Below are positions 9,365 to 55,244 of a stretch of 64,000 nt of DNA, piece by piece. Position 1 is the first letter of the stretch. Every line of letters begins with the position of its first letter. The notes under the pieces are model-generated. The model made no database searches, had not been told where the DNA came from, and worked only from the letters and a program-made list of their open reading frames with translations. Both the position numbers and the translations under genes were made by a program. Source of the DNA: Argopecten irradians (lineage: Eukaryota > Mollusca > Bivalvia > Pectinida > Pectinidae); NCBI RefSeq assembly GCF_041381155.1, contig NC_091142.1, positions 40,907,604 to 40,971,603 on the forward strand, in the 5' to 3' direction.

Positions 9365-11084
9365 TTAATATCCACCACCTGAAAAAGTAAAATAGAGATG
9401 TGGGATGATGTATCATAATATATATTTTTTTTCGTAACAAAAAACAGTTGTAAAAAATAAAGAGAATATCGATATTTAGTTGAACTTGAACAAAAAGATT
9501 GAAATATACATTTATTTCTTCATGTAATACTCACTTCCGCTGCTGCCGCCTCCCATGCCGCCACTTCCACCGAAGGGGCCGCCTCCCATGCCACCACTTC
9601 CTCCGAATGGACCACCTCCCATGCCACCGTCCATGCCTCCTTTGCCGCCTCCCATACCGCCACTTCCTCCGAATGGACCGCCGCCCATGCCACCGCTTCC
9701 TCCGAAGGGACCACCTCCCATGCCGCCGCCCATGCCTCCTTTACCGCCTCCCATACCACCACTTCCTCCGAATGGACCGCCGCCCATGCCACCGCTTCCT
9801 CCGAAGGGACCACCTCCCATGCCGCCGCTCATGCCTCCTTTGCCGCCTCCCATGCCGCCACTTCCTCCGAATGGACCGCCTCCCATTCCTCCGAAGGGAC
9901 CACCTCCCATGCCACCGCCCATGCCTCCTTTACCGCCTCCCATGCCGCCACTTCCTCCGAATGGACCGCCGCCAATGCCGCCACTTCCTCCGAACGGACC
10001 ACCTCCCATGCTGCCGCCCATGCCTCCTTTGCCGCCTCCCATACCGCCACTTCCTCCGAATGGACCGCCGCTCATGCCGCCGCTTCCACCGAAGGGACCA
10101 CCTCCCATGCCGCCGCTCATGCCTCCTTTGCCGCCTCCCATGCCGCCACTTCCTCCGAATGGACCACCGCCCATTCCTCCGAAGGGACCACCTCCCATGC
10201 CACCGCCCATGCCTCCTTTACCACCTCCCATACCGCCACTTCCTCCGAATGGACCACCGCCCATGCCGCCGCTTCCTCCAAAGGGACCACCTCCCATGCC
10301 ACCGCCTATGCCTCCTTTACTGCCTCCCATACCGCCACTTCCTCCGAATGGACCACCGCCCATGCCGCCGCTTCCTCCGAAGGGGCCACCTCCCATGCCA
10401 CTGCCCATACCTCCTTTACCGCCTCCCATACCGCCACTTCCTCCGAATGGACCACCGCCCATGCCGCCGCTTCCTCCGAAGGGACCACCTCCCATGCCGC
10501 CGCCCATGCCTCCTTTACCGCCTCCTATTCCGCCACTTCCTCCAATCCCCCCGAATGGACCGCCTCCCATTCCTCCGAATGGACCGCCTCCCATGCCACC
10601 GCCCATGCCTCCTTTACCGCCTCCCACACCGCTCATACCACCAGAAGGACCGCCTCCCATTACACTCGTGCCGCTGAAGGGCCCACCTACCATGCTTCCC
10701 GAACCACCGCCATATGTACCTATAATGTTAACAATTGTCATCTAAGCATTGAACTAAAACGAATGCTTCAGAAATCCGTTCGCATTCTCATCGTTATGGA
10801 TGGTTATGCAATAGAATGGGAGGTTGAAAGAGGTCAGTTTCTGCGAAAGATAGCTTTTTGAATGAAAAGATCTGAAAGTGTAAACGTTCCATCACATATT
10901 TTGTTGTTGTGGGAGTTAGAATCAAAATTATGTTGTGAAATTAAGAAGTAGTATCTTATGGTCTTAATAACTCTAAATATGAATAAATAATGGTTTTTAC
11001 AGGACGTGGTAGCAGAAGTGACATATTACCTGCGGTACTAACAACCACTATCAGGCAGGAGACTATACAGATGAAGGTATTCAT
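9365..11084 (-). CDS. Abductin-like Gly/Met-rich elastomeric secreted protein
   Basis: Three coding exons by eye: 11084-11030 (signal peptide), 10719-9535 (repeat exon) and 9378-9365 (last codons), about 417 residues. The signal is MNTFICIVSCLIVVVSTA, likely cleaved before GTYGGG. Splice sites: GCAG/GTAATA donor, ATTATAG acceptor, GGAA/GTGAGTATT donor, CTTTTTCAG acceptor; both introns are phase 1. The repeat exon carries 11 lysine-headed units of about 33 residues, built from GGPFGGSGGM and KGGMGGGM blocks. Abductin, the scallop hinge-ligament rubber, is built on a GGFGGMGGG-type decapeptide, hence the call. The mature chain has no Cys or Trp and only two Tyr, third from the N-terminus and last residue. 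Without splicing the last exon, the frame would end in EYYMKK, which is intronic. A shell-matrix glycine-rich protein is the alternative reading. Confidence 0.85.
9555..10650 (-). repeat. About 99-bp coding minisatellite in the abductin-like gene
   Basis: Eleven tandem units of roughly 99 bp (33 codons), with some 90-bp units lacking one SGG step. Period and indels are multiples of three, so the frame is kept. All long open frames on the opposite strand here (proline-rich) are shadows of this repeat. Confidence 0.9.
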
Positions 11085-11811
11085 GCTGATCAGCTGCAAC
11101 ACAAGTAAACAAAACGTATGTGTAAACAGTATGCTAAAACGTAAACAAAAAAGGGACACAGTAAAATATCTAATAACGTCTTAATTGATTATGATTAACT
11201 CTTTATTATATCAACTGAAGATAACAGTGAATAAACTGTAAATATTTGCCAGTAAGTAAAACTAAACTCGTATTAACACTCAGCGGTGGTGTTGTCAGTG
11301 TGATGTTATACACACGGAATAAGGACAACGTTATTACTATATCTAGGTTATAATTAATTATAAACTATCTATATTATATTTATTTATTTATTGTATTTCG
11401 TCTAAGAAGTGTTGATATAAGATAAATGTGACATTACAAAATGTTAATATGATGTTGAATAAGGTAAGACTGATATCTCAATTCTTAAAGCATCATCAAA
11501 TGAAGTAATGTGTATATATGCATATTTTATTTTGATAAATTTTCAGTAAGTGACAACATTTGAATTTTATAATTGATATCAATCATATTCCGCATTTGCA
11601 TGAAACAGAGTTATCTGCTCTTGATAAAAGACATTGATTGTTACGTCATACGTTTGTGTGCAACTATTATGTCATTTCTCTTAAAAAATTATTGTACTCA
11701 TAGATATATGACGTCACTACAAATATCTGCAGTCAAGATACATATTTAACTCCAAAATATGTAAATACAGATTATAATATCATACGTTACTACTTCATAA
11801 TCTATCCTTAC

Positions 11812-11892
11812 CTTATGCAGTGTGGAGACCGTTCAGCGTTAACGTTGTAAGGAGAAAGGTGGCTGATGATGACCAATAGAGGTATATTTATA
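11812..11892 (-). promoter_or_regulatory. TATA promoter and untranslated exon 1 of the abductin-like gene
   Basis: TATAAATA lies at 11892-11885 inside GGTATAAATATACC. About 70 bases downstream is a strong donor, CATAAG/GTAAGGA, ending the untranslated exon at 11812. The next exon starts at 11093 after acceptor TACTTGTGTTGCAG and holds the start codon nine bases in. The transcription start near 11860 is inferred from TATA spacing. Confidence 0.6.
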
Positions 11893-11894
11893 CC

Positions 11895-13529
11895 TGTCTA
11901 TAACGGAAGTCTGCAGAATATTCTAACTAGGGCATTTCAAAGGTCAGCTCAACAAGTATTACTGGTTATTTATTGGTGTTCATTTGACTGTAAACTGCTG
12001 ATCAGCACATTTACGGAGCCTTTGTTGCAAACGAAACATGGAATTTGCACATTTTTATGACTTCAGCTCATTCTTATAACATATCTGATACCATTTAAAT
12101 CAGGAGGCACGTAAAAGCCATATCATTTTACATTCTCTTTTATTGAAACAAAAGTTCATGAAACATGCTGAATCTGCATTCTTGTCCACATAATTCACAA
12201 ATAACATGCTCATAAATTCTACGTCTTTCTACCGTTCTTTGTACTTAAAGTTTTACGGTAGGGCGTAATAATGGCGTTAAGTTGTTTAACAAAATCACAT
12301 GTTTGGTGTGGTCTTTTGTTCTTACTCTCCACTGAATATGTCTTGTTTGACGGCAAGCATTTCTTAACAAACAACTGTTGCTGATTATGCATAATACAGT
12401 GAGGGAAAATGTAAGTATTACTATTTACCTATTATTTATTCTAATCGAACAAATATTTGTGCAAGTTTTGATAAAAGAGTAAAACAAGTTTAAACACTTC
12501 CAGAACTTATGTTATTATCGTTTTACTGTAAATACGTTAACGTATTATATCAATTTATACCTCTATACAATGTGCATAGTTTATCTTTTGATTCCGAAGA
12601 CCAAAACACTACTATTTTGTAGAGACAAAGTTTGAATATAGATCTAGTTGTGCCTTTCAGACACAATTTCCATAAATATATCTGTATGTAATTAAACTAT
12701 CTAGGATTAAAAATGAAACTACCGAGACATTTGTGAAAACGAGCATGTTTATCGGAGAAAAAGTTTGAATGAAATCGTCAAGTCAGTTGTATTTATTGGC
12801 AAATCACTTCGAAAATTTTATTTTACAGATATCGTGCAAATATACGGTAAAATAAAGCCAGTGTCGTGCAACTAGGTAAATATACATAATTATAATTTTT
12901 GTGCCAATATCAGTTGGAAAGGTATGTTACAGGTGCTTTGAGAATATTTGTTAATTAGTAAAACTTGCGGTCATTGTAAATGTTTCATTTTTTCAGGTTC
13001 AAACATTTTTGTATTGTTAACTGACTCTCTATTTAAATGTAAATAAAGTGATTTCGGCTGTTTTCACATGGCATTGCTTGACAATTGTTATAAATATACA
13101 AATCCTCAGAAACTGTTGACCGGTTTATAAATTAACTGTTGACCAGCGAGAAGCTTATGTATGCGCTTAATTGCTGACGTCATAATGAATTGGTGACGTC
13201 ATAAAGACCGGCGCTACGGACCCAAATACCTTTCGACGAAAGTCTCTCTCGTCGAAAGCTGTGAAAACTGTGCCATCTCACAGGAGGGAATCCATTCGAC
13301 TTATACTAGGACTGTTTTTATCTTGATTTTGTATTATGTATATTATGATACTATGCTATTTTAAATGAGAATTGTCAAACAGTATACCACTCAGCTACAG
13401 TGTAGAGTCCAGACATTGTATTGGCTGACGAGGATGCCTCACCTAACCTATTACTTTCCTCTTCTTGTAGTGAAAAATAATGCTATAGTTATTGATTTTA
13501 CATGCAAACTGAAACAGGACCTGAAATTT
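11895..13529. other. AT-rich intergenic DNA with a small hairpin
   Basis: No gene is supported. Near 13230-13260 an inverted repeat CTTTCGACGA ... TCGTCGAAAG forms a compact hairpin, preceded by two TGACGTCA palindromes near 13180 and 13195. Confidence 0.6.
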
Positions 13530-13950
13530 ATGGAAATGTGTCATTGTTAATGAAGACAAATGTATGGAAATGTGTCTCATTGTTAATGAAGACAAATGTA
13601 TGGAAATGTGTCTCATTGTTAATGAAGACAAATGTATGGAAATGTGTCTCATTGTTAATGAAGACAAATGTATGGAAATGTGTCTCATTGTTAATGAAGA
13701 CAAATGTATGGAAATGTGTCTCATTGTTAATGAAGACAAATGTATGGAAATGTGTCTCATTGTTAATGAAGACAAATGTATGGAAATGTGTCTCATTGTT
13801 AATGAAGACAAATGTATGGAAATGTGTCTCATTGTTAATGAAGACAAATGTATGGAAATGCGTCTCATTGTTAATGAAGACAAATGTATGGAAATGCGTC
13901 TCATTGTTAATGAAGACAAATGTATGGAAATGCGTCTCATTGTTAATGAA
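13530..13950. repeat. 36-bp tandem minisatellite, about 12 copies
   Basis: The unit begins ATGGAAATGTGTCTCATTG and continues TTAATGAAGACAAATGT. The first copy is two bases short; the last three share a GTG-to-GCG change. Because 36 is divisible by three, several frames stay open on both strands. These are not treated as proteins. Confidence 0.95.
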
Positions 13951-15359: not shown

Positions 15360-16861
15360 TCAGTGATACATTCCTCCGTCCATCATCATGTTACCAAACG
15401 GGAAATAGACTCGGCCCATTCCACGCATGCTCGAGTCGTCTCCCTTGTAGCTGAACTGCCATTCACCTTTAACAAAGAAACATAAATAAGACAACCAGAC
15501 AAATGTAGAGTGTTTTACAGTTTTGCTTTCTTTCTTCGGAAAAAAGCTTTGATTGTTACGTCATTGCTTATAAACTATAATCATTCAATAATTTCAAACA
15601 ATTCCAAAATATATCCAACAATGATAGGAGGTATCTCCACAGTATAGCAATGGGACGTATCGGAAAAATAAGCGTCTCCTGTTTCGCCTTCGATAACCGC
15701 CATATATAAGTGTATACATTTTTTATGTGAGCATAAATTCATAATTTCTACACAAAAATATGACGTCGTCATTTTGTGAACAAATAATGACGTAAAAATC
15801 AAAATGTCAATGTCAAAACTGTCAAAACTGCATTCAGATTAGTGAAAAAGCGAGTGAAAATATCACTGATATTTTCAACATAAAACCTTTTATTTCACTG
15901 CGAAAAATGTAATAAATAGAAAATATTCCTTGTTTCTTGATGAATACCAGTACTATTTCATCGAATGAGGTGGAAACTTTGAAATTTTTCACACGTTCTT
16001 CGCACACGTGAAAAATATCAAAGTTTCCATCTCACTAGCATTTCACAGCTCATGTGCTCATGTGTGATATCAATTTCTATCATGTATAACATACATACAG
16101 CATGCTTTATTTGTGATAATTTAATAAAAGACAAAAAAAAATTGAAAATAAGTATTACTGAGTAAAAAAAAAACAACAAATGTGTCAATTTAGAATTGAA
16201 CAGGATTAATATGAATTAAAGAACAGTTCTCTACAGCCCACATTTGACATTGATTTCAACAACATATATACTTACAGCACTCTTTGTCATGATGCAAAAA
16301 AAATAATTCTTACTATTGTGATGCGACTTATCCTATATTTGAAGTTCTGATTGTCAGTTCTGATCACGAAAACGTATCAGTGACAAGAAACGGGATTAAT
16401 TTGAATTATAAAATAATGCTTTACAGCTCACGTGTGACGTGTGTGACACGTATGACGTGTGTGACACGCGTGACATGTGTGACATTGATTTCTATAAATA
16501 ACTTACCTCTATCTCCCCTCCACATGTCCTGGGACCAGGCGGTCGAGCACGACAGGATGACAAATAACACCACAGCTAGACAAACACATTTCCCCGCTAT
16601 ATTCTGTAAACATAAATACAAGATATGTTGAAAAGATAAATTTTATAGTTTTCATGTCACTACGTATATATATAACTTATTTCAGTCAATTGTCTTATCT
16701 ACATTCCTATATAGAAGGACATTTATTCAAATGCACAATGTAAGTACCACGACATTTTCTATATTTTTTTTTATAATGACTACCTTATAATTAAATCAGC
16801 CTTTTGAAAATTTTAAGCAAACAATTAGTAAATTATGTCCTAACTGTAATTTACTTACCAT
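15360..16861 (-). CDS. Small secreted peptide precursor, 68 aa, unrecognised
   Basis: Three coding exons: 16861-16859 (only the ATG, followed directly by donor GTAAGTAAA), 16603-16507 and 15466-15360. Acceptors are TTTATGTTTACAG and TTTGTTAAAG; donors GTAAGTAAA and GTAAGTTAT. The product starts MNIAGKCVCLAVVLFVILSC and the signal is probably cleaved around STA/WSQ. The mature peptide of about 43-45 residues carries DMWRGDRGEWQFSYKGDD, two MRGMG-like steps, VYFPFGN and a Met/Gly tail ending GGMYH. There are no cysteines after cleavage. The second intron is phase 1, as in the neighbouring Gly/Met genes, and the promoter also has a TATA box. I do not recognise a family; a shell- or ligament-matrix peptide is inference from context. 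Confidence 0.72.
15850..16034. repeat. Cluster of palindromes, probably a fold-back element
   Basis: GAAAATATCA C TGATATTTTC near 15858-15878 is a perfect 10-bp inverted repeat. At 15967-16034 the arm GGTGGAAACTTTGAAATTTT and its near-perfect inverse flank a short CG-containing loop. The cluster sits in the second intron of the small secreted-peptide gene. It looks like an insertion of a fold-back or MITE family; ends and target duplication are not clear. Confidence 0.6.
16430..16483. repeat. Short GTGTGACACG-type tandem repeat
   Basis: About five imperfect 10-12 bp units of the kind CGTGTGACACG/ATGACGTGTG. It lies in an intron, just after the donor of exon 2 of the small peptide gene. The open frame across it is intron read-through. 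Confidence 0.7.
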
Positions 16862-16941
16862 GATCTAGCTTATGGTCAGTGAGGATATCGACAGGTTGAA
16901 ACAGTCTGGACGGCAGTGAACTCCCGGACACTGGTCAAACA

Positions 16942-16948
16942 TTTTATA
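16942..16948 (-). promoter_or_regulatory. TATA box of the small secreted-peptide gene
   Basis: TATAAAA on the minus strand, about 80 bases before the start codon at 16861. With a start of transcription about 30 bases downstream, exon 1 would be short and would end in the ATG itself. Confidence 0.6.
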
Positions 16949-16949
16949 G

Positions 16950-19162: not shown

Positions 19163-19532
19163 GCCGGTGTAACGTTGAAAATGGACCCCCGTTGAAAACT
19201 GACCTCGGATCATTTTTTAATGTTGAAGAATGACCCCAAAAACCATTGAAAACTGAACTTTGAGTGCACTTTTCACACCGACCCGTTGAAAATGGATTCC
19301 GTTGAAAGGTGACCCCATAAGAACTCGTTTCTTTTTTATTACGTAACCCAACTTTCCCGATGACTGGCCTCAGTCGACTCGATTTATCTGTCTTAATTTG
19401 GAAAAAATGAATCAAGGTCAATATTTCTATTAAAGGCGAAGATGTTTTTGTACATTTTCTATCTATATAAGATATTATGAAGCAAATAAGTGCAGAAATT
19501 AACGAAAAGGTTGTCGGACAAATGCATTAGTT

Positions 19533-19635: not shown

Positions 19636-20537
19636 AAAACACACAACACAACAACACATAACAACACCATACGACAACACAACACATCAACACACAACAC
19701 AAAATTTAACAACAACATCACACAAAACTACACCATACGACAACACAACAAATCAACAACAACACACAACAACATAACACACAACAACACACAACTACAC
19801 ACAATAACACAACAAAACAACACACAACACAACAACACACAACACAACCACAAAACAACAACACCACACCACACAACATAACATCACACAAAACAACAAC
19901 ACAACACACGACAACAGAACACCACACAACCACACATCACGCAATACAACAAAACACCAACAACACAAAACGACACAACACAACAACATACAACCAAACC
20001 TTAACACAACACCAAACAACACAACACACAACAACACACAACACCACATTACACAGCAGCACACCACACAACAACACACAACACAACCACTCAACAACAC
20101 CACACAACAACACATCATACAACACACAACATCACACAACACAACACTACACAACACAACAACACACCACATCTTAACGCACAACACTACAACACACTAC
20201 CACAACAATATACGACCACAACACAACATCACTACACAAAAACACAACAACATCACAATATACAACGACACAACACATCAACACACAACACCATACGACT
20301 AAACAACACATCAATATACAACACAATAGCATACAACAACATCACACAACAACACAACACCACACAAAACTAACAACAACACACAGCAACAACACAACAC
20401 CACACAATACATCACACAACACATAACAACACACAAACACAACACACGACAACACAACACACAACCTCACACACACAAAACAACAACATACAAAAACACA
20501 ACATCACAACACAACCATACGCAAATCACAACAAAAC
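19636..20537. repeat. ACAAC/ACACA low-complexity tract, 0.9 kb
   Basis: Almost pure A and C with occasional T, built from ACAACACAACAC-type units and no fixed long period. The Cys/Val-rich minus-strand frames here are artefacts of the strand bias. Confidence 0.95.
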
Positions 20538-25422: not shown

Positions 25423-28213
25423 TCATCGTCTATCATCAAACGGGGTCGCCCCTCGAGGTCCCTTCCCAGCAGACGGTTCTGTACTGGATTGAACTCCACC
25501 ACTTCCGGTTGGCCCCTGGCCTCCGAAGCCGTGTCTTAAAAGGATTGGAAATCTTTGCATAGTGAGTGGCATCCAGTGCTGATTCTGTGATGGCGGTATT
25601 GGATGCCAATTCCCACGACCAAAATTAATCGGAAATCGCTGCATTCTGAATGGTGCCAAATGCATCATTCGGCTCCATGTTGGAGTAAAGGATTGCCAGG
25701 GTAAAATCATGTCAGGAAAGCTATGACCCGCATTCCCCGGAAACATGCTCGGAAATCTAGCCGGCATGGATGTTGGATGGACATTTCTCCAGGTGAAAGG
25801 TGCTCTTGCGCCAACCATATGCATCATGCGTCTTTGGAAGGGGACTCGATTCATCCGAGGGATCCACTGAGGGCGATTCCGCATGAGGTGCATTTGAGTG
25901 TTTACATTCAGTGATGTCGGTTGCCAGGATCTCGCTGTAATATTAAAAAATACATTGCATTTAGCTATGAAATCTTGATCTATACATGTATGTATGTACA
26001 GCAATAAAAAATATCTAATATTGATAAAAAAATCCGCCTTGGACATTATGCTTACACAATACAAACATTTATATGTTTTCATATAATAAATACATTGTAC
26101 GTCTATGCATTGTTGTGTGCATGCTTGTTTCAAAACAATCACACTCGAAATTAAATGCGTTCCGAATATTAAACCTATTTTAGTAGCATTGGATATTTTT
26201 GAATGGTCACATCGTTACTATTGCTTTATTTGGAGAAAGATTTTTTCGCGACTTTATCTTTATTATCGCATCACTTTAAACGTATTCAGAAATGGACATT
26301 CTTGGTTGTTTGATAAAGTTCACAACAAAAATACCTACCATGACCAATATCCATTCTTTGCACCATGTGCCTCCTGTGATTGGTATTCGGCACCCAATGT
26401 CTAATGCTGCGTGTTATCCGAGAAGGCGAGCCGTCTATATTCCACGAAATGAAAAAAAAAGATAGCAAGGATAATTACAACAGAAAAGGGGACAAAAAAT
26501 GGTACCAATAATTATAATAATCAAACTTACGATGGAAAATGAAGGCCTAATGCCACAAAAAATCATAATTCTACAAATGACTTCAAAATGTTACCGTTGA
26601 AAAACAAGTAAAATATTCCTAATTAATTGATTTCGAAAAAAAAGTGTTCTACTTTCCAATAGTGGTCAATTGTACTTCTGAAATAATCAAATAACAAAGT
26701 GGACAACATTTCATTTATATTCTGTATACCTATTTATTCTAGCGATAGTTAAGTATTGATCGTCTTTCAGTTGGCATTCATAGCCAATATGAATGAAACT
26801 TGACAGAGGCAAATTCAATGAAGCGAGCTAGCGCTTCATATTGAATTTGCCTCTGTTCAGTTGGCTTATATTTACATTTGGTTACAATTTTACGATGAAG
26901 TCCTAAGGGATTTTGCATCTATAATGAATTTATCATTCGTTATCGTCATGAATAGAACAGCAATTTGAACAATCGTTTTCCGTGATCACTGGAACGACAA
27001 TTGTAAAGTTACAATGATAATGATGTCATAATAAACGCTAGAAGAGAGCAACCAACTAAATGATTTTACATAGACCACAGTGTTAAACTTTGTTAAAGTT
27101 TTGTACTGTATTATTAAAACAAAGAAATATTAGTTAGGTATTGTGTTCTATAATTAAAGTCTAGGTTCTCATATAACACTAGATAGAAAAAAAAGTTTGG
27201 GTCCTTCTGCTCAAACTCCAACCAGGGTAGCTTTATTGAAATCAGGCGCATTTTGCACTAAGATATCCGGAAATTCTAATGTTTTTACCTATTCATTATC
27301 AAAATTGATATTTTGAACCTAAATCTCAATATGAATTTCCAAATTGATATTATGGTTATCTAGGAATAATTGACTGTCAGAAAACATTTTTACTTTTGAA
27401 ATTCATAATTAGCCAGCCAATCAGCGGCCGGGTTAAAATTCTATCCTGGGCTCAATCTTGTATACACAGGGGCCATTTCGAAGGTCTTTTTTTATTTAGT
27501 TGGTTGATCCCTTAGAAGGTCATAGACTATATGAATGCAAATTGCGTTTGGTAAGGTTACATAGTGGAACTGCAGTGAAAATGTAAATATTTTTATCTAA
27601 GCGCTTTTCGCATTAAAGACATTATTTTTTAAGTAAATTATCATGTCAAAATAAAATTGCTGAGTGAATGTCGACCCGAATTAAGGTCCTATTCTTGCTG
27701 TAAATTTTGCTGAATATCTTTTCATTGCTTTGAAGAATAAGGTGTTATTATCTTTAATGAGCTTATTCATGTTAAGTATACATTTTGAAAAGGAATATTT
27801 CAGGTATTGAACCACTGAACAGTGTTAATTTATATCTCCGATAATAAATATAATTCACAGTTTTCCGCATTTGCGCTAAAGTTTGACCGAGCTAAGATTA
27901 GTACATTTACAGTATACTGTACAGTAAACCAACTCTGTTTCGCGGCTGTAATTTTACGATATCCATTTCAAAACAATTTCGAGAAGATTAACATTAATTC
28001 ATATCAGCATAATGATTTAAATTTTAGCTCCAAGAGATAAATTTTCGCGAATTTACATGGACCGCGAAAGTAAATCACCCCCGAAAGATAGTTGGTTTGC
28101 AGTACTTTCTACTCACCATTGTCGCTATAGGCCAGTACAGTGGTAAAACCAATGACAATAAACAATGCGCCAAACATGACCTTATTCTTTATCTTCATCT
28201 CATATATAGCCAT
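25423..28213 (-). CDS. Secreted basic Met/Trp/Arg/Pro-rich protein, candidate matrix protein
   Basis: Three coding exons: 28213-28117, 26434-26339 and 25934-25423, about 234 residues. All junctions are canonical: donors AATG/GTGAGT and CATG/GTAGGT, acceptors GGAATATAG and AATATTACAG. Both introns are phase 1. The N-terminus reads MAIYEM-KIKNKVMFGALFIV and continues IGFTTVLA, a signal peptide probably cut before YSDN. A second in-frame ATG five codons in is an alternative start. The mature chain is very basic, has no Cys, about 16 Met and 8 Trp, many Arg/Pro/His, and a repeated MQRFPI motif. It ends with a Gly-rich stretch (GFGGQGPTGSGG) and TPFDDRR. By composition it recalls methionine-rich nacre proteins such as MRNP34 of pearl oysters, but I cannot show homology. 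Confidence 0.75.
26804..26855. repeat. Near-perfect palindrome in an intron
   Basis: CAGAGGCAAATTCAAT-GAAGCG and its inverse flank AGCTAG, with a two-base bulge. A 10-bp direct repeat, TTCAGTTGGC, lies on both sides (near 26766 and 26856), as if the palindrome had been inserted and duplicated its target. Confidence 0.7.
26861..27040. repeat. Dispersed repeat, copy 1 (second copy near 41.35-41.52 kb)
   Basis: It shares with the second copy, in the same order, TTTACAT, ATTTT.CATCTATAAT, CATT.GTTATCGTCA, GGAAC..CAATTGT and ACAATGATAATGA. The copies are diverged and aligned only by eye. It lies in the first coding intron of the Met/Trp/Arg-rich gene. Confidence 0.5.
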
Positions 28214-28483
28214 CGCACCTGAAAAGTTATTGCATGAATACAAATGATTTATAAAAATCTTTTTTTTCCCTGTTTTTCATTTTTTTATTTTATTTTTGGC
28301 GAGCAAAAATGCTTTTACAATTTTCTGCATTTAACACTGAAGCATAAACCGAAAAAATATATTGTAAAGAATATTATAATAAAAGTATATTACTATAAAT
28401 ATAATTTGTATATTTTACTGTAGTTATGAATAAGTTACTTTGAGATAAATATATTTTGCATTTTAACAGGTACATTCACTTAC

Positions 28484-28530
28484 CTCCTTAATCAACAGGA
28501 CGTGTTGGGGAGTATGTCCCCCCTTTTATG
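28484..28530 (-). promoter_or_regulatory. Promoter and untranslated exon 1 of the Met/Trp/Arg-rich gene
   Basis: CATAAAAGGG at 28530-28521 is a TATA-like box. About 40 bases downstream, AAGGAG/GTAAGTG is a strong donor (exon end 28484). The signal exon begins at 28218 after CTTTTCAG. The implied first exon is very short, so another start upstream is possible. Confidence 0.45.
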
Positions 28531-31835: not shown

Positions 31836-32080
31836 TACCATGTTAAACCGCGAAATGAGAGTAAAATCAAAATTTTGTATACGAAACAACTAAAACTAAC
31901 CCTACAATGATAGATTATCACTTCACAATTCAAAATTGTAATCATTACTCCGTTGTTTTGACCAATAAAAAGGCACGTTATAAACGACAAGGCCTTATTT
32001 TGACATCATGTGCTGATACGAGTAAAGTTTTAAAGCCATCGGATATACTTGTTGCAAGCGAGATTGAACTGTTATGTCGA

Positions 32081-35410: not shown

Positions 35411-35479
35411 TATAAATGGACCAAGGCGGAATCAGCTTAGTGCCGAGAGCCTAATCACTTCCAGCCAGTTGTTGTCAAG
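35411..35479 (+). promoter_or_regulatory. TATA promoter and untranslated exon 1 of the Met/Gly/Lys-rich gene
   Basis: TATAAAT at 35411-35417 is followed by an exon ending at a strong donor, GTCAAG/GTAAGTGG (exon end 35479). The next exon starts at 37448 after TTTGTATCTTCAG, 27 bases before the ATG. The transcription start near 35441 is inferred. Confidence 0.6.
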
Positions 35480-37447: not shown

Positions 37448-37474
37448 AGTGTCGTCGTCCCCAGGAAAAAAAAG

Positions 37475-39984
37475 ATGAGGATAAATACGTTTTTAAGCAG
37501 TACCTGCCTGTTATTACTATGTCACGTGATCACCGTCGTCTCCGCAGGCGGCGGGGGCGCAGAAGCAATGAAAAAGCTGATGGGAGGTAGGATCTATATC
37601 ATTGGTTTTAAACCATTTTTTAAAAATGCAATTCAATTCAATTGACTATTCAATATATACTTTTAAACTGCTGTTTTAATTCTTTTTGCGTAAAATTCAT
37701 TTTTTATAAGTGCTCTTTGAGTAGACGTCAATTTAAATTATGTGCCAAAACGTTATTAAATGCTTTGATATTTCTTTGAAAAATTTAGAATAATTATCTT
37801 ACGTGACAAGGTAAGGTTTGCGCCAACGTCATAAAACACATGAAAAGTTAACGTCAAGTGAGATGTCTTAACACATATTGGCAGGTCAAATCTATTTCAC
37901 AGAATCTAGTATAAAATAGGTAATAAAAAGTGTGTGATCTATACAACAGATTTAATTTTCTTCCAGGAAAAATGATGTCTAAACCTATGGGAGGTATGAT
38001 GTCTGCTGGCATGATGATGTCAATGTCCAACCCTATGATGTCTATGGGCGGAATGCCTATGGGCGGAATGCCTATGGGCGCGATGCCAATAGGCATGGGC
38101 ATGCAACCTATGGAGGGCATGCCTATGGGAAAGCCTGCAGGTGGAATGGCCATGAAACCTACCAGTATGAAACCCGGGGCTGCCGCTCCTGACGATATGG
38201 AACCGGCTGAGCCGGCTGGTGGCGCAGGGCCACCGAAGAATAGCATGACCAACAACGTGATGATGATGATGGCTCCAATGGGAGGCAACATGGGTGGTGG
38301 CATGGGAATGATGCCAGAATCAATGTCACCAATGATGAAATACATGATGAAAAAGAGGATGATGATGATGGGTGGCATGGGAGCAATGGCAGGATCAATG
38401 GGTGGAATGAAACCTATGATGGGTGGAATGGTGCCAATGGGCGGTATGATGGAAGGAATGCCAATGGGAGGGATGATGGGCGGTAAGCCAATGGGCGAAA
38501 TGAAACCTATGATGGGCGGTATGATGCCAATGATGGGCGAAATGAAACCCATGATGGGCGGTATGATGCCAATGATGGGCGAAATGAAACCCACGATGGG
38601 CGGTATGATGGAAGGGATGCCAATGGGAGGGATGATGGAAGGTAAGCCAATGGGTGGAATGAAATCTATGATGAGCGAAATGAAACCCATGATGGGCGGT
38701 ATGATGCCAATGATGGGCGAAATGAAACCAATGATGGGCGGTATGATGCCAATGATGGGCGAAATGAAACCTATGATGGGCGGTATGATGGAAGGGATGC
38801 CAATGGGAGGGATGATGGGCAGTAAGCCAATGGATGGAATGAAACCTATGATGAACGAAATGAAACCCATGATGGGCGGTATGATGCCAATGATGGGCGA
38901 AATGAAACCAATGATGGGCGGTATGATGCCAATGATGGGCGAAATGAAACCCATGATGGGTGGTATGATGGAAGGGATGCCAATGGGAGGGATGATGGGC
39001 GGTAAGCCAATGGGTGGAATGAAACCTATGATGAACGAAATGAAACCCATGATGAGCGGTATGATGCCAATGATGGGCGAAATGAAACCAATGATGGGCG
39101 GTATGATGCCAATGATGGGCGAAATGAAACCCATGATGGGTGGTATGATGGAAGGGATGCCAATGGGAGGGATGATGGGCGGTAAGCCAATGGGTGGAAT
39201 GAAACCTATGATGAGCGAAATGAAACCCATGATGGGCGGAATGAAACCTATGATGGGCGGTATGATGCCAATGATGGGTGGAATGAAACCTATGATGGGC
39301 GGTATGATGCCAATGATGAGCGGTATGATGGAAGGAATGCCAATGGGAGGGATGATGGGCGGTAAGCCAATGGGTGGAATGAAGCCAATGATGAACGGTA
39401 TGACGTCAATGGGCGGTATGATGGGAGGAATGCCAATGGAAGGTATGAAGCCCATGTCACCTAAGCCGTCTAAATCAAAAGGTAAGCCATGATTTTTATA
39501 TATTGGATAACAAAGCTTTTAAAAATTTGAAAAATAAATGAGGTTTTTGAAGGGAAGCTGCTGACATTGTATGATCATATAGAATGAATCGTGTAAAACT
39601 CATGTTCCTTTAATCCTCCATTCAACGTAAACTATTCTTTGTGAATGTATTACATACATGAAAAACGCATATGAAGTTAAGTACAAGCGTTGTGAATAAT
39701 AATTTCCAAATAATCTCTGACTAGGATAAGGATACCAAGCTTAAAAATATTAATTATTGCCAGTAAATATAAAGAAAAAGGAAAAACATAGTGGAAAATT
39801 GGCATAATATGTTAACCAAAATGGTCAAAATATTTTCTAATTTTGTATCCTTTGCCAGTATTTAAACCTCATCATCACAACTACAAATCAAAACCTTGTC
39901 ACCCTGAACAGATAAGATGCATTTGTATAACTCATTGATGAACTAAACTGTCTCCATTCCTTTGTTCCAGGAGGATCCTATTAA
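37475..39984 (+). CDS. Secreted Met/Gly/Lys/Pro-rich repeat protein
   Basis: Three coding exons: 37475-37586, 37967-39481 and 39971-39984, about 546 residues. Splice sites: GGAG/GTAGG, TTCTTCCAG, AAAG/GTAAGCC and TTGTTCCAG; both introns are phase 1. The signal peptide MRINTFLSSTCLLLLC continues HVITVVSA and is cut before GGGGAEAM. Residues about 38-170 are a Met-rich leader region containing the only Ala/Pro/acidic segment (PDDMEPAEPAGGAG) and MMKYMMKKR. The rest is about five 60-residue repeats of KPMGGMKPMMNEMKPMMGG-type steps, then a basic tail (PKPSKSKG) and the final GGSY from the tiny last exon. The mature chain has no Cys, Trp or Phe and exactly two Tyr (about residue 163 and the last). 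An extracellular matrix or ligament role is inference; the repeat is not the abductin decapeptide. Confidence 0.85.
38440..39390 (+). repeat. 180-bp coding minisatellite
   Basis: Five long units of about 180 bp (60 codons), each made of shorter GGCGGTATGATGCCAATGAT and GGCGAAATGAAACC blocks. Central units are nearly identical, which suggests recent homogenisation. The long Ile/Pro-rich frame on the minus strand is a shadow. Confidence 0.85.
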
Positions 39985-43812: not shown

Positions 43813-43932
43813 CGATGCCGACTGGACAAAATGGCTGTCTCTGCTGGATTTTTGGAATATATTTTGACGTGAAATGCTTTGTTATGTAAGTATTTTTAGT
43901 CATGTGATATAAAGTACATGTATCTTAAACTT

Positions 43933-45449: not shown

Positions 45450-45462
45450 TACTGTAATCATA
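45450..45462. repeat. Target-site duplication, 5' copy
   Basis: TACTGTAATCATA, identical to the 13 bases at 48138-48150 at the other end of the LINE. Confidence 0.8.
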
Positions 45463-48137: not shown

Positions 48138-48150
48138 TACTGTAATCATA
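48138..48150. repeat. Target-site duplication, 3' copy
   Basis: TACTGTAATCATA, the second copy of the sequence at 45450-45462. Confidence 0.8.
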
Positions 48151-48868
48151 TAAGATAAGAATCTTGATAATGCTTTCATCTTAATTGCATTGAGCATACA
48201 AAAGATTGTTGAAATTGTGGGAAAAGAAAGATTACTTGTTTTGCATGTACCATCGGTTAAACAATGATCAACCCTAGTACAGTATATTTTATTATCTTAT
48301 TTAATGGTTTAACTAAAACATCAATTCAAATGCAAATATATATCCACCTCATGATCTCATCCATCTTAAGTTTTGTTTTCTCAAATTGAAGTAAGGTCAT
48401 TTTAAAGATGAACCTTTAACTGTCGGTGTCATTTAAAAAAAAAGTTTTTTTTTAAATAATTCATGTTTTAAAATTAGATTGAATGGTGAATCAGCGGTTA
48501 ACTTGGTCACGTTTTCTTTAACAATTAAAGAAAAAATCAAAACCAGTCAGACTGAAATAAAATTTAAATCATTTCTGAGACAGAAAAGCAGTAGTATGTC
48601 ATTTACCTTCTGTTGATACAGTGTAAAGTAATAAGTATGTTTATTGGTGCGTAAAGGCGCACGTGTATCACAATTTTACCTGTCGTCTTCCTTTGATTTC
48701 TTATGTTTTACCTGTACGGATTTGACCTCTACATGACCTCCGGAAGTATTTTATGCCAAGTCAAGCAAGTCACTGTCCTGAAACATTTGATGTATCCGCT
48801 CACGTTCATGTTGTCCGTTTGTTTAGCACTGTTAACAATTAAAAATACGTGTTACTAGTTAGATAACT
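48151..48868. other. AT-rich intergenic DNA
   Basis: Nothing supported is visible between the LINE and the promoter of the next gene. Confidence 0.6.
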
Positions 48869-48985
48869 ATAAATTACGTGCTAGGCTTGTGTAACTCAGA
48901 ATTGGCCCTTAGTCTCTAGCCCTTGATACCTAGCTCCGCAGGAATTAACACCGACAAGCCATAAAGCATATACGTGCGAATCTAA
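48869..48985 (+). promoter_or_regulatory. TATA promoter and untranslated exon 1 of the Gly/Met-rich gene
   Basis: TATAAAT at 48869-48875, then about 110 bases to a donor TCTAA/GTAAGTAG (exon end 48985). The signal exon starts at 49500 after TTTTTATTCTTACAG, 12 bases before the ATG. Another TATA-like site (GTATAAAATG near 48992) lies inside this intron, so the start is not certain. Confidence 0.5.
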
Positions 48986-49511
48986 GTAAGTAGTATAAAA
49001 TGATTATGTTTTGTCAGATAATCTTATTTTGCATTTGAACTTGTCTTCAATACATGATTTTTTCCACTCGTATACGAAAAATACTAAGATAATATCAATG
49101 TCAATTTATTCGAATCTAAAGTTATATTTTCAAAAACAACATTATATTTTGTTTATAAAGTCAGACTATAGCTTTAATCTTAAATCTGGTTTTAGCGAGA
49201 TTTTAGTAACTATTAAAGTATTGTAACATGTAGATTTCAACCTTTGGTTCTAATAAACAAGCCTAATATTTTAATTAGAGAAAGTTCGAACTGAAACAGA
49301 CCATAAGAACGGTAAATTAATAAAATTCAATTATTTGTATGGAATTTACTGTATAAAGATGTAATCAACGTGATGCCAAAGGATAAATGCAACCTTCCAA
49401 CATTGATGGTTTACATACATTATAGTTTAGTCATTTTCTTCTTTCCAGATAATAACAATACATTCTGAGAATATATATGTCCTCTTTTTATTCTTACAGA
49501 TCTCCTTCACG

Positions 49512-52500
49512 ATGCCGTCAGTCACACTTTTCCTTAAGCCCTTTTTCCTCATGGGGCTTGTTCTGGGGTACAGCGTTGGAGGGGGCGCAGGAGGAGCTGG
49601 TGGAAAAGGAGGTAACTGTTTATCTATTGTTAAAAAACTTACGTTTTACCACAGTGTGGAGCCGGATTATGGTTACAGTAAGATGTATTACAGGGGAAAA
49701 TAGCGAGTGAAGTATATTGTTTGTCAAAATCAAAAACAGGTATTTCGATGGCATAATAAACGTTGACCATTTCTTTTGATGTAACAATTTTAGCTGATAT
49801 TGAAATCGTCTATTCATAGATTCATTGACTTTGGAGTGAAACTTTTAAAATACATTTTACAAAATACATTAGTATTATTATCAGGTACACGTAATAATTG
49901 GGAAAATCTAAATTTACCGTGACGAGTGTATGAGCAAAGCGAAGTTAATAAAGCACATTTCAGTTGCCATGTTAGAGATAAATTTAAAACTAGCTATAAT
50001 AATCATATAAAAATACAAGGTTTTTTTTCGGTCAATTTGTTTTTTGCTTCCATTTTTGTTTGATAGTATACTGTATCATATTGAATGAGTACATATGAAA
50101 GGAACATTTTTTTTCAATTTAGGGTATTCTATTGATGCGCAAAATATTGAGGTTAACCAAACGTTCTCAAATTTGTGTGACGTTAAATGCATGAAACTAT
50201 AGTATTCAGAAATTATAATATATTTATATCAGCTTTTCAGTATTAAGATCTTATGTTTAGAAATTCAACACTTTCTGGATATCCCTTTGATCTTTTTTAT
50301 GTTCATATACATTTTGTATCTTAATATAAGTTATAGGTTCCGGAAATGAAACCAATATTGTATCTTTGTTTAATAATATATGGTTAATTGTCTGAAACTG
50401 ATGCATATAAATTAAGTCTTTTTTAAGTAAACAGAACAATTTGTTGCTCTTTAGAACATTCGTACTTAAAATGACGAAATCATATTCCCCTTTATATTTG
50501 GGTCTAAATTTCGCCCGCTTTATAATATTCTGTGTTTTTTTTTAGAAAAAATAGATTAGTTTTCTTTATATTAGAACATTTTATACATGTAATATTAATA
50601 ATATGCTACTTTATAAGCAAATCGGAAAAAAAGGGAAAAAACCCCAACTAAAACATTATCTACATGTATTAAAAACATTATACTAAATTAGAACCCGCAT
50701 TTATTTCAGACGTTACTACCATTTGTTGGGTAAAATCTCCACGTTATTTTTCATATACTAGTACCATACTACATTAGCCAATTTCCAGCCAATGCTATTC
50801 TTATAGGGTAATGCACTTTATAGTGCCTTAAAATGCTGGAGGCAAACGTGAGTAGATGTCTGTACATATGTATATATGCTACACTGTAAAATACCCATCA
50901 ACTATGGAAATTGGAAACATCAGTAACTCTCCGTTTCCCCACTTGCTATCACAGATACCAGGTTTTCTGTAAATATTAGTTGTTTTAACACTGTCTATGG
51001 AAATCTAGTTATTGGAATGTTTTGAGATAAACGATACTTAAATTCTAATGAAACAGTTATTACATGTTATAAGATCAAATAATTCTAGTATTTATTTGTA
51101 CCAGAATAAAATTTCTTTTAAAGGGACAATTCAGTCTAAGAGAACATTAAAATTTGTATATATATCAGATAAAACAAGTTCTAATGGAAATTAGATCAGT
51201 CAGTTTTACTGTGATATGCCTGAAACGCCTTTGATGGTGACACGTGTGTGAAATATTTGAAGACTTGCTCGCTGTCCGCCATTACACACTGTGGTCGAAC
51301 TTCTTGTATGCCGAACCATGTCCCTTGCTCGTAAAGTAATGCAACTTTTGGTTAGAACTGCTCAAATCGCTCTGACAGTAGTGTGTTTACCTTATTAGGT
51401 GAATTGTCTTGCCTAAAAATCATTTTATCACCTTCTCAGTGGTTATGTAGTTCAATGTAGTTCATTTGTTTAACGTGCGTGACTTTGGCTCGGGTATGGG
51501 TACAGAGTTAATATTGTACCTGCTTAATCGTATTGATCAACGATTTGATATTTCAACGATATTAATTAAAATACTTAACAATGTCGTGGAATTTGTCAAT
51601 GTTTTACGTTATATGTTTCATAAGAAATGTAGAACAATACATTTATGCTATATTTTGCTTATTGGTTATGTAAAAGAATTTGCCTGAGTGAATTGTCTCT
51701 TTAAGTAAATATTGTCATCGCTATAACAATATAAAATTAATGTCTGAATTTGAATGTGAGCAATTAAAACGTTCCACTTTATAATCAAATAAAGAGGAGA
51801 TTTTTACAGCAATATCCAAATATAAACAAACTGTTGTTATTTGTATTTGCCGCATTGTTTTACATTTTAAATCTGTTTTGCCTCCATATGAAATTCCAGT
51901 ACTTATGTATAAACGCTATTTATAATTACATCTTGTAGTATACGACACATTTTGTATGCAAAGATGTCGCTACATGTATGTTGATGATTCTAATATCCCA
52001 ATACATGCATCGCTCTATGAAGATGCTTTATACCTGATTTGTGTTCTGAAGATCATTTACCTTTCAGTCTCTGTATGTACAGTAGTATAGGTGATTATAT
52101 GTTACAAGGTTTGTTAGTTTTACAACCGTATTGTGTTGTGGTGTATACTACATAGGCAATATTCCTTCACGTGGATTTGGATTTCACCTGAAATTCACTT
52201 GAATGTCCTTTCACGTGATTCCACGGGAAATGTTTTTTTCCATGGTTCACGTGAAATCCTTGTGAAGACATAATGTATATTACCACGATAAAAGTGAACC
52301 AAATGATTAAACATGACTACCATTGTTAAACATGATTTAGTGGCCTGGAATTGAAGTTCGATTGATAGAAAAAAATAACCTACATGTAATCACTTTGTAC
52401 GAAGTGATGATATTTACCCCTGTTGATATTTGTCTTTTCATTTGATGAAATCATACTTTACGTTCACAGGTGCAAATGGAGGAGGAAAAGGCAGCGGTGC

Positions 52501-53134
52501 AGGCGCGGGAATGTCTGGCATGGGAGGGAAATCAGAAGGAGTCATGATGATGCCATCTGGTAAATAGAGGTTCCCCGACAAGTGACTGTTGGTTATCATG
52601 TTTATCAAGTTTTGAAAAGACACCGAACTTTAGTGAGTGTCTTGTAAAAGATTGAAAATTAAATAACTGGTATTTAGATAAACATGATAAACAAAAGTCA
52701 CGCGTTTGGGGAACTTGGTAATCCCTTAAGTTTAACTTTATATTTATACCGTGGTGATCATTTATTTCACGTCTACATTCAAGGGAACTTGCCAACATCA
52801 ATGCGTCATAATATTTTTCCGCCAAAAAAAAAAAAAAAAAGGTGCATAAATAGAGAGCTAATATTCTATTGTTTAAATAAGCAACTACATGCATCAATAA
52901 ATACAATATTCTTTAAAAGAAAATGCGCTATGAAAAGTTGTCCGAAGGTAAAAGCCAATCGGAATCATGATATGTTGGAATTAACCAATCAAAATCGCCA
53001 TAGGTGTAAACACATGATTTTTCCATTGTGAAACATGTATAGTTATGGGATAAATATTAATCCGAATAAATCTCAGATATTACTATCAACATTTTGTCCT
53101 TACAACTGCAAACCTCCTGCGAATATATACCATA

Positions 53135-53192
<58 letters not shown>

Positions 53193-55244
53193 CCTCTTCC
53201 CCTATTGTACATTTATGTATATTTGTATAATTTGTAAGTGTGTGTGAATGTTTTGGCATGTGTGTATAGGATAAAAAAAGAATTGACCAAATTGAGTATG
53301 TATAAGTTTGTATATCCTGTAAGTGTGTGAGTGTGTGTAAGGGAAGGGTGCGATAGTGTGTGTGTTTGTGTGTGTAAGATAAAAAAAAAAGAGAGAATAA
53401 GGATATGATAATTCATATTGAAAAGTGTTTGTTTACCAAGTAAGGATGAGGAAATGTATTACTGTTGTATGAGAATATGTCTGGAAAAAATAAATAAGTT
53501 ACAAAAAAAACCCAACATTTTGTCCTTACAGGTGGCATGGGAGGAAGCATGATGGGCGGAGAAGGTGGCATGTCTGGTATGGGCGGAGGAATGGGATCAG
53601 GGATGACTGGTATGGGAGGGATGATGAGCGGTAAAGCTATGGGCGGTATGGAAAGTATGATGGGCGGTATGGGAAGTATGATGGGAGGAAAAGGTATGGA
53701 AATGGGCGGTATGGGAGGAATGATGGGTGGTATGGGAGGAATGATGGGAGGAAAAGAAGGTATGGGCGGTATGGGAGGAATGATGGGCGGTATGGGAAGT
53801 ATGATGGGAGGAAAAGGTATGGGCGGTATGGGAAGTATGATGGGCGGTATGGGAAGTATGATGGGAGGAAAAGAAGGTATGGGCGGTATGGGAAGTATGA
53901 TGGGAGGAAAAGAAGGTATGGGCGGTATGGGAAGTATGATGGGAGGAAAAGGTATGGAAATGGGCGGTATGGGAGGAATGATGGGTGGTATGGGAGGAAT
54001 GATGGAAGGAAAAGGTATGGAAATGGGCGGTATGGGAGGAATGATGGGCGGTGAAGGTATGGGCGGTATGGGAAGTATGATGGGCGGTATGGGAAGTATG
54101 ATGGGAGGAAAAGAAAGTATGGGCGGTATGGGAAGTATGATGGGAGGAAAAGGTATGGGCGGTATGGGAAGCATGATGGGAGGAAAAGGTATGGAAATGG
54201 GCGGTATGGGGAGTATGATGGGCGGTATGAGAAACATGATGGGCGGTATGGGAAATATGATGGGCGGTGAAGGTATGGAAATGGGCGGTATGGGAAGTAT
54301 GATGGGAGGAAAAGGTATGGAAATGGGCGGTATGGGGAGTATGATGGGAGGAAAAGGTATGGGCGGTATGGGAAGCATGATGGGAGGAAAAGGTATGGAA
54401 ATGGGCGGTATGAGGAGTATGATGGGAGGAAAAGGTATGGGCGGTATGGGAAGTATGATGGGAGGAAAAGGTATGGAAATGGGCGGTATGGGAAGTATGA
54501 TGAGAGGAAAAGGTATGGAAATGGGCGGTATGGGAGTAATGATGGGCGGTGAAGGTATGGGCGGTATGGGAAGTATGATGGGAGGTAAAGGTATGGGAAT
54601 GGGTGGCATGGGAAATATGATGGGCGGTATGGGAGGAATGATGGGCGGTGAAGGTATGGGCGGTATGGGAAGTATGATGGGAGGAAAAGGTATGGGCGGT
54701 ATGGGAAGTATGATGGGAGGAAAAGGTATGGCAATGGGCGGTATGGATGGAATGATGGGCGGTGAAGGTATGGGCAATATGGGAAATATGATGGGCAGTA
54801 TGGATAGCATGATGGGAGGAAAAGGTATGGGTGGTATGGGAAGTATGATGGGCGGTATGGGAAGTATGATGGGAGGAAAAGGAGGCATGGGAGGCGGATC
54901 TGGAAGTGGCGGAAAAGGAATGGGTAAGTAGCTTCTTTAAGACAGTGCAAATACAACTGATAATAATATAACGTGACTATATAAGAGTCGATCGTTCATT
55001 GGTCGAGCATACACTGGAATGATTAGTGTACGTTTGCTACATCCTCAATATGGAATCGGAAGTGTACTGAGACTGATAATATTTATAAATATCTTAGAGT
55101 TAGATAACAACTCATTAAGATGTATGTTCCCACTTCTAGTGAAAAAAAAAATCCTATATATGAATTTTCAGTAAAAAAAACATGCAGAACTAGTACCTTA
55201 ATAATTGAATTTTTTTTTTTCCAGGTGGCGGTAAAAGCTACTAA
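49512..55244 (+). CDS. Secreted Gly/Met-rich repeat protein (elastomer or matrix type)
   Basis: Four coding exons: 49512-49611, 52470-52559, 53532-54923 and 55225-55244, about 533 residues. Donors: AGGAG/GTAACT, TCTG/GTAAAT and ATGG/GTAAGT; acceptors CGTTCACAG, CCTTACAG and TTTTTTCCAG. All three introns are phase 1, so exons 2 and 3 are symmetric modules. The signal peptide MPSVTLFLKPFFLMGLVLG is probably cut before YSVGGG, or slightly later. A short Gly/Lys linker exon (GANGGGKGSGAGAGMSGMGG) precedes the giant exon of GMGSMMGGKGMEMGGMGGMM-type steps, mostly Gly and Met with regular Lys/Glu. The last exon adds GGKSY. Exactly two Tyr occur in the precursor: residue 20 and the last. No Cys or Trp anywhere. 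Architecture matches the abductin-like and Met/Gly/Lys-rich genes, making the three probable paralogues. Confidence 0.85.
51118..51704. mobile_element. TTAA-type MITE, copy 1
   Basis: About 0.59 kb. The left end reads TTAA-AGGGACAATTCAGTC and the right end, inverted, TTAA-AGAGACAATTCACTC. The same element occurs at 56248-56834. TTAA at both edges suggests a piggyBac- or Kolobok-type target duplication. It sits in the first coding intron of the Gly/Met-rich gene and encodes nothing recognised. Confidence 0.8.
52150..52255. repeat. Cluster of TTCACGTG(A) motifs
   Basis: Three to four copies of TTCACGTG/TTCACCTG/TTCACTTG-like words and an inverse partner within about 100 bases, inside an intron. 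They could be a short imperfect repeat or a cluster of E-box-like sites. Confidence 0.35.
53139..53190. repeat. (TC)n microsatellite
   Basis: About 26 uninterrupted CT/TC repeats, followed by a GT-rich stretch to about 53380, in the intron just before the giant exon. Confidence 0.95.
53600..54890 (+). repeat. Coding minisatellite of GGTATGGGAAGTATGATGGG steps
   Basis: Short in-frame units (mostly 33-57 bp combinations of GGCGGTATGGGAAGTATGATG and GGAGGAAAAGGTATG) fill the giant exon without a single strict period. The Pro/Ile- and Pro/Tyr-rich frames on the minus strand are shadows. Confidence 0.9.

What the first reader, a model, noticed from the sequence alone, without database searches (positions are those of the whole stretch)
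9365..55244. A cluster of secreted Gly/Met-rich elastomer or matrix genes sharing one gene plan
Three genes (9365-11084 minus, 37475-39984 plus, 49512-55244 plus) share a TATA-like promoter, untranslated first exon, signal exon, single giant repeat exon and a 14-20 base last coding exon. Two other TATA-driven secreted-protein genes (15360-16861 and 25423-28213) sit between them. One repeat is abductin-like (known from scallop hinge ligament); the other two have different Met-rich repeats. This suggests a ligament or shell-matrix locus with members beyond abductin.
Basis: partly seen in the sequence, partly recalled or inferred. Interest (0 to 1): 0.85.

Follow-up and report, generated by a model that had tools for sequence, protein, structure and literature searches.

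The report
Abductin-like and methionine-rich secreted gene cluster
A stretch of animal DNA, probably from a bivalve, carries five neighbouring gene models for secreted, methionine-rich proteins, one of them much like the rubber protein of scallop hinges, which suggests a small locus for building hinge ligament or shell matrix.

Summary
Spliced models A (9365-11084, minus), B (37475-39984) and C (49512-55244) are open, have signal exons, only phase-1 introns inside the coding sequence, and 14-, 14- and 20-nt last exons ending GGY, GGSY and GGGKSY. Such a terminal mini-exon is rare (13 of 617 acceptor-like sites end in Tyr-stop; 4 also carry Gly, three of them these genes). TATA-like boxes followed by a splice donor lie upstream of all five models. 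Corrections: C has an extra 90-nt exon; D has no untranslated first exon; B and C share a seven-residue repeat MGGMxxM (18 and 35 copies, 0 in A).

A is abductin-like (63% Gly, 11% Met in the predicted mature chain) and shares Cys6 and Cys10 with scallop abductin as a review describes it. It lacks the exact decapeptide and has more proline, so I do not file it as abductin. D and E are methionine-enriched too (16% and 8%). Best reading: a ligament or shell matrix locus. No expression data, no named host and no eukaryotic relatives were reachable, so taxon, tissue and function are inferred. New variant of a known kind.

The parts
11812..11892 (-). Gene A: TATA box (from 11892) and putative untranslated first exon ending at donor GTAAGG (first intron base 11811)
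   Evidence: inferred, no transcript
11030..11084 (-). Gene A signal exon (MNTFICIVSCLIVVVSTA-G), Cys6 and Cys10, phase 1 after
9535..10719 (-). Gene A giant repeat exon: 34 PF- or K-headed blocks (last one with the tail), 29 of them 11 residues long, plus one PS-headed block of 11; mostly a 33-residue unit
9365..9378 (-). Gene A last coding exon (14 nt), ends GGY-stop; AATAAA 44 nt after stop
35411..35479 (+). Gene B: TATA box and putative untranslated first exon, donor at 35480
   Evidence: inferred
37475..37586 (+). Gene B signal exon
37967..39481 (+). Gene B giant exon: Met/Gly/Pro/Lys repeats, heptads within a 180-bp (60-residue) tandem unit of 5.0 copies
39971..39984 (+). Gene B last coding exon (14 nt), ends GGSY-stop; AATAAA 67 nt after stop
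48868..48985 (+). Gene C: TATA-like box and putative untranslated first exon, donor at 48986
   Evidence: inferred
49512..49611 (+). Gene C signal exon
52470..52559 (+). Gene C extra 90-nt phase 1-1 exon
53532..54923 (+). Gene C giant exon: MGGMGSM-type heptad repeats
55225..55244 (+). Gene C last coding exon (20 nt), ends GGGKSY-stop; AATAAA 160 nt after stop
15360..16948 (-). Gene D: TATA 16948, coding exons 16859-16861, 16507-16603, 15360-15466; 68-aa secreted Met-enriched protein ending GGMYH
25423..28530 (-). Gene E: CATAAAAG 28530, donor 28483, coding exons 28117-28213, 26339-26434, 25423-25934; 234-aa secreted Met/Pro/Arg/Trp-rich basic protein, both coding introns phase 1

Best explanation
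The locus is a small cluster of structural extracellular-matrix genes, most likely made by mantle epithelium of a bivalve. A encodes an abductin-like elastomer: a signal peptide, then about 400 residues of mostly 11-residue Gly/Met/Phe blocks that stay disordered, with tyrosine only at residue 3 of the predicted mature chain and at the very last residue. B and C encode a probable paralogous pair of methionine-heptad matrix proteins with lysines throughout and the same kind of Gly..Tyr tail. After secretion the chains would be joined through the terminal tyrosines (dityrosine-type bonds by tyrosinase or peroxidase) and perhaps lysines, giving an insoluble elastic or scaffold network of hinge ligament or shell. 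D and E would be co-secreted accessory matrix proteins. Shown here: gene anatomy by sequence, signal exons by hydropathy, repeats, the shared Tyr end, the heptad common to B and C. Inferred: taxon, transcription, tissue, cross-linking, elasticity.
For: Open spliced models with one gene plan; terminal Gly..Tyr mini-exon rare by chance; TATA plus donor for all five; codon constraint in A; 23 windows of A within one mismatch of GGFGGMGGG against a shuffle mean of 2.8, maximum 8 of 500, and Cys6/Cys10 as reported for Argopecten abductin; B-C shared heptad far above residue shuffles and codon-order shuffles; all five predicted mature proteins Met-enriched, P from 9e-5 (D) to 9e-181 (B) against 2.5% (background and cleavage sites assumed); methionine-rich insoluble proteins are known from ligament, nacre and prism of Pinctada fucata; shell-matrix genes are frequently tandemly duplicated there.
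Against: No transcript, proteome or tissue evidence. No marker in the window names the taxon. A lacks the exact abductin decapeptide (0 copies) and at two mismatches is no richer than shuffles can be (41 windows; shuffle mean 25.8, maximum 47); it has 5.8% proline where the review calls abductin very low in proline, and its N-terminus is not alanine-rich. A has no DNA kinship to B or C beyond protein similarity. B's and C's synonymous excess is no greater than one satellite frame's, and antisense frames of A, B and C are open. C's Tyr20 may be cut off with the signal peptide and B's other tyrosine is internal (163), so a two-ended tyrosine plan is clear only for A. E has no terminal Tyr.
Confidence: 0.57

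Rival explanations
1. The genes make shell scaffold (nacre, prism or periostracum), not ligament: methionine-rich chains self-assemble into an insoluble framework for calcium carbonate, like NU-5 and MRNP34.
For: Methionine-rich regions were found in insoluble proteins of nacre and prism as well as ligament; NU-5 knockdown disturbed nacre tablets.
Against: A's composition and Gly/Met/Phe blocks fit abductin more closely. The same paper says some nacre and prism proteins had acidic-rich regions while the ligament ones had none; B and C hold at most 4 and 3 acidic residues in any 30.
Confidence: 0.25
2. The genes make byssus, adhesive or egg-case material: secreted Gly-rich fibres with terminal tyrosines cross-linked outside the mantle.
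For: Secreted, repetitive, Gly-rich with Tyr and Lys; silk-like proteins are described from byssus and other animal materials (passages).
Against: No Pfam domain in A, D or E (B and C not scanned); only two tyrosines per chain in A, B and C, whereas byssal adhesives are recalled to be Tyr/DOPA-rich.
Confidence: 0.1
3. The methionine heptads of B and C (Met three residues apart) serve mainly to bind copper or take up oxidants, feeding copper enzymes of matrix cross-linking, with structure secondary.
For: Met spacing like copper-binding 'Mets' motifs (recalled); copper amine oxidase is named among shell matrix proteins (passage).
Against: No direct evidence; matrix self-assembly explains the composition as well, and A has no such heptads.
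Confidence: 0.05
4. The giant exons are not translated in these frames; an antisense frame or a non-coding minisatellite is what is there.
For: Antisense frames of A, B and C are open and nearly as synonymous or, for B by ratio, more so (1.82 against 1.62); one satellite frame reaches 1.70.
Against: Sense frames have signal exon, phase-1 junctions, upstream TATA with donor, AATAAA 44, 67 and 160 nt after stop and the common Tyr end. Sense A is the strongest of all frames with more than 10 differences (2.54). Three long satellites are roughly flat by codon position, unlike A (8, 2, 40); the fourth control, 13524-13950, is third-position biased but has only 9-10 differences.
Confidence: 0.03

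Closest known systems
Abductin (Argopecten irradians hinge ligament, as described in review PMC13052691, section 2.4 read)
   Same: Short N-terminal part with Cys6 and Cys10, then a long Gly/Met-rich repeat with Phe; a tyrosine near residue 20 in both (Tyr20 there, Tyr21 in A).
   Different: A has PFGG(SGG)MGGG blocks, not the exact GGFGGMGGGX; 5.8% proline; Phe4 not Tyr4; two tyrosines, not three; N-terminus not Ala-rich. The abductin sequence itself was not available here.
LMP, methionine-rich ligament protein of Pinctada fucata (PMC7591529, parts 1 and 2 of 6 and passages read)
   Same: Major insoluble ligament protein with abundant methionine; like B and C in this.
   Different: LMP is recalled from memory to repeat MMMLPD; B and C repeat MGGMxxM and do not contain that motif. 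LMP sequence not available here.
NU-5, MRNP34 and other Met-rich shell matrix proteins (PMC7591529 as above; PMC4660305 passages)
   Same: Met-rich; NU-5 also repetitive and in the insoluble fraction.
   Different: NU-5 has glutamic-acid- and serine-rich regions; B and C have no acidic-rich region. MRNP34 sequence not available here.
Shematrin and other tandem shell-matrix gene clusters (PMC4759782 passages)
   Same: Clusters of shell matrix genes, shematrins being repetitive and Gly-rich.
   Different: No methionine-rich family in the passages shown (the word methionine has 0 occurrences in that paper's main text). Members here lie on both strands and are not all alike.
Gly/Met tails of GroEL (PMC12571646 passages)
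   Same: GGM-type sequence, compared there with abductin; polyproline II tendency.
   Different: Chaperonin tail of about 19 Gly/Met-rich residues; a likeness, not a relative.

Membership tests
Abductin (gene A) | Gly/Met-rich main domain with Phe | tested here: met
   Predicted mature A 62.9% Gly, 11.0% Met, 23 Phe of 399
Abductin (gene A) | Exact consensus GGFGGMGGGX | tested here: not met
   0 exact; 23 windows within one mismatch against shuffle mean 2.8, maximum 8; 41 within two against mean 25.8, maximum 47
Abductin (gene A) | Cysteines at 6 and 10 | tested here: met
   Cys6 and Cys10 of A against the review's text
Abductin (gene A) | Tyrosines at 4 and 20 and a third | tested here: inconclusive
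   A has Phe4, Tyr21 and C-terminal Tyr417; the place of the third abductin Tyr is not given in the review
Abductin (gene A) | Very low proline; Ala-rich residues 1-20 | tested here: not met
   5.8% Pro; one Ala in residues 1-20
Abductin (gene A) | Located in hinge ligament | not testable with these tools
   No expression or proteome data
Methionine-rich ligament protein LMP (genes B, C) | Abundant methionine | tested here: met
   39.1% and 32.2% Met in predicted mature B and C
Methionine-rich ligament protein LMP (genes B, C) | MMMLPD repeat (recalled) | tested here: not met
   Motif absent from both models; the motif itself is from memory, paper not held
One gene family A+B+C | Shared gene plan and Gly..Tyr end | tested here: met
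   C has one exon more
One gene family A+B+C | DNA kinship of repeats beyond protein similarity | tested here: inconclusive
   B-C: 2 of 150 synonym shuffles reach the real score, 8 of 100 one-sided; A-B 83 of 150 and A-C 148 of 150, so none seen for A
Known protein families | Pfam or solved-structure match | tested here: not met
   A (first 155 aa), D, E: 0 Pfam families at 0.1 (B and C not scanned); A giant exon: 0 chains at 0.001; E: 2 weak chains at up to 1, best 0.015; B, C, D not searched against structures

The most novel reading that the evidence does not exclude
A, B and C are end-linkable chains: the tyrosine that cross-links them is put on by a separate 14-20 nt last exon kept in all three, so the repeat exon can lengthen, shrink or change sequence freely while the chain end stays reactive. 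In A the only tyrosines are near the two ends, which would make a long-strand rubber. If A is the abductin counterpart, the Cys6, Cys10 and Tyr4 discussed as cross-link sites in published abductin would lie in the signal peptide and be removed, leaving the terminal tyrosines as the real junctions.
Probability: 0.35. Interest if true: 0.68.

Novelty: new variant of a known kind. Interest (0 to 1): 0.5.

Why it matters
Abductin's gene seems little described in the open papers I could search: my searches led me to five papers that use the word in this sense (PMC13052691, PMC3291537, PMC7591529, PMC4944945, PMC12571646), and none of the parts I saw describes a gene or its neighbours. This is no census: one search listed 40 of 732 papers, mostly on 'abducting', and subscription papers are mostly not held. 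A locus holding an abductin-like gene beside two methionine-heptad genes and two further Met-enriched secreted genes would show how a molluscan rubber is encoded, spliced and linked, and give sequences for elastic biomaterials. The mini-exon carrying the reactive chain end makes a testable design rule.

Tried and rejected
Sixth gene: an orphan TATA plus donor pair at 6271/6385 was followed through 4940-9365; I saw no secreted or repeat exon. Signal-exon scans: the strict one returned 4 rows, B once and E three times; the relaxed one 22 rows, among them A, B and E. They miss C (too weakly hydrophobic) and D, so they do not exclude further members; of the other rows only 30671 was looked at and left open.

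Outside relatives: no genome is held for the window. E in genome contigs and the giant exons of C and A in viral contigs gave no relative (73, 60 and 11 pattern stretches, none confirmed); these are prokaryote and virus collections, so this says little. No Rfam match at gathering score, no tRNA by the bacterial-code scan.

Triplet (polyproline II) periodicity: block lengths in A are 8, 11 or 14 apart from the last, but lag 3 is not favoured over lag 4 in A (0.45 against 0.52), so I do not claim it. Six repeat strings searched in full text gave one unrelated hit. The 2019 ligament paper (PubMed 31604125) is not held. No structure prediction was run: the repeats are low-complexity and D and E have no alignment.

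Full report
What was checked. I read the five claimed genes, located the splice sites and translated the spliced models. All five are open: A 417, B 546, C 533, D 68 and E 234 residues. The 9 coding introns of A, B, C and E are all phase 1; D has one phase-0 intron directly after its ATG and one phase-1 intron. Last coding exons of A, B and C are 14, 14 and 20 nt and end GGY, GGSY and GGGKSY. D ends GGMYH; E ends FDDRR.

Is the plan more than chance? Across both strands 617 acceptor-like sites pass a simple pyrimidine test. 264 give a phase-1 frame that stops within 8 codons, 13 have Tyr before the stop, and four of these carry Gly: the three genes and one other (47415, minus). In the 700 nt after each giant exon there are 3, 3 and 4 acceptor-like sites, one per gene of the Gly..Tyr kind. 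For promoters, 383 YATAWAD sites exist and 21 are followed within about 120 nt by a consensus donor; five of the 21 are those of the five genes. I chose the donor pattern after seeing these five, so this is support and not a blind test; TATAWAD alone is common, about two per kb per strand. AATAAA lies 44, 67 and 160 nt after the stops of A, B and C; for D it is 363 nt away and for E 451 (ATTAAA at 120).

Are the giant exons coding? Comparing 12-codon windows with their best other copy, A has 37 synonymous changes of 50 single differences where 14.6 are expected; all differences by codon position are 8, 2 and 40. B has 17 of 38 (10.5 expected) and C 17 of 41 (10.6); methionine has no synonyms, which weakens the test there. 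Against this: one antisense frame each of A, B and C is stop-free and gives 32 of 47 (14.6 expected), 18 of 39 (9.9) and 18 of 52 (14.8), and one frame of the 32080-34896 satellite reaches 39 of 80 (22.9), a ratio of 1.70. The three long satellites are roughly flat by codon position; the fourth control (13524-13950) is third-position biased but has only 9-10 differences. So the test supports A, does not prove B and C, and does not decide strand; the gene anatomy does.

What the repeats are. A parses into 34 blocks headed by PF or K; 29 are 11 residues long, three are 8 (PFGGMGGG), one is 14 and the last, with the tail, is 18; one further block headed PS is 11 long. Lysines are 33 apart in 8 of 10 intervals and 30 in two. 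No exact GGFGGMGGG occurs. 23 nine-residue windows are within one mismatch, against 2.8 on average and 8 at most in 500 shuffles; within two mismatches 41 against 25.8 and 47, which is not distinctive. A against B or C shows nothing beyond protein similarity (83 and 148 of 150 shuffles reach the real score). So B and C are probably paralogues; A joins them only through gene plan and composition.

Composition. With assumed signal cleavage after residues 18, 24, 21, 25 and 28, methionine makes up 11.0, 39.1, 32.2, 16.3 and 7.8% of mature A to E, all above a 2.5% background. The background figure and the cleavage sites are my assumptions. A's only tyrosines are residue 21 (third of the mature chain) and the last residue. 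C's are residue 20, which may fall in the signal peptide, and the last. B's are residue 163 and the last. C's signal exon is the least hydrophobic.

Comparison with the known. A review (PMC13052691, section 2.4 read) describes Argopecten abductin as an Ala-rich residues 1-20 with Cys6, Cys10, Tyr4 and Tyr20, then a Gly/Met domain with GGFGGMGGGX and very low proline. A has Cys6 and Cys10 exactly, Tyr21, Phe4, one Ala in its first 20 residues and 5.8% proline. In A this N-terminal stretch is a signal exon. I therefore call A abductin-like, not abductin, and suggest that the published N-terminal domain may be a signal peptide; this rests on the review's words, since the abductin sequence was not at hand. 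PMC7591529 (first two of six parts and passages read) reports Met-rich insoluble proteins from nacre, prism and ligament of P. fucata, LMP as the highest-scoring ligament protein, and abnormal nacre on NU-5 knockdown. So members beyond abductin are already known in kind. The repeat strings of A, B and C were not found in the full text of the held open papers (six strings, one unrelated hit); supplements and subscription papers were not searched. Tandem shell-matrix clusters are known in Pinctada (PMC4759782 passages).

Mechanism. Shown: secretion signals by hydropathy, repeat design, common Tyr end. Inferred: disorder and elasticity (abductin is said to adopt polyproline II in PMC12571646 passages), cross-linking at terminal Tyr and perhaps Lys, and ligament or shell as destination. 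The taxon is inferred as bivalve from A's likeness alone; I found nothing in the window that names it.

Limits. No eukaryotic sequence collection, RNA or protein data could be searched. Scans of prokaryote and viral contigs gave nothing and mean little. Signal-exon scans recover at most 3 of the 5 genes, so other members may be missed.

Noticed in passing
4946-6177: A 1.2-kb element with 46-nt terminal inverted repeats, 87% complementary, probably a DNA transposon or MITE.
   Followed up: partly
45464-47703, +: A broken non-LTR-type retrotransposon in three ORFs: RVT_1 at E 1.6e-9 in the first, RVT_1 and zf-RVT below cut-off in the others, followed by a CT tract at 47708-47796. It lies between genes B and C.
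   Followed up: partly
404-4945, 32080-34896, 57544-61159, 13524-13950: Four satellite or minisatellite arrays with units of 40, 21, 38 and 36 bp; the 36-bp array has 98% matches.
   Followed up: no
19641-20515: A long ACACA-type simple repeat with strong strand asymmetry.
   Followed up: no
52568-52715: A 39-nt inverted repeat (79% complementary, 70 nt apart) right after the donor of gene C exon 2.
   Followed up: no
6271-6385, +: A TATA box with a consensus donor 114 nt downstream, in front of no gene that I could find.
   Followed up: yes
30671-30850, +: An ORF that opens with a signal-like stretch (MISSLIIFSVLSCVNG) and runs on for at least 60 codons, between the promoters of E and B; may be chance.
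   Followed up: partly
9512-9543, -: If A's last intron were kept, A would end SGSEYYMKK, putting two tyrosines near the chain end; a possible alternative end.
   Followed up: no
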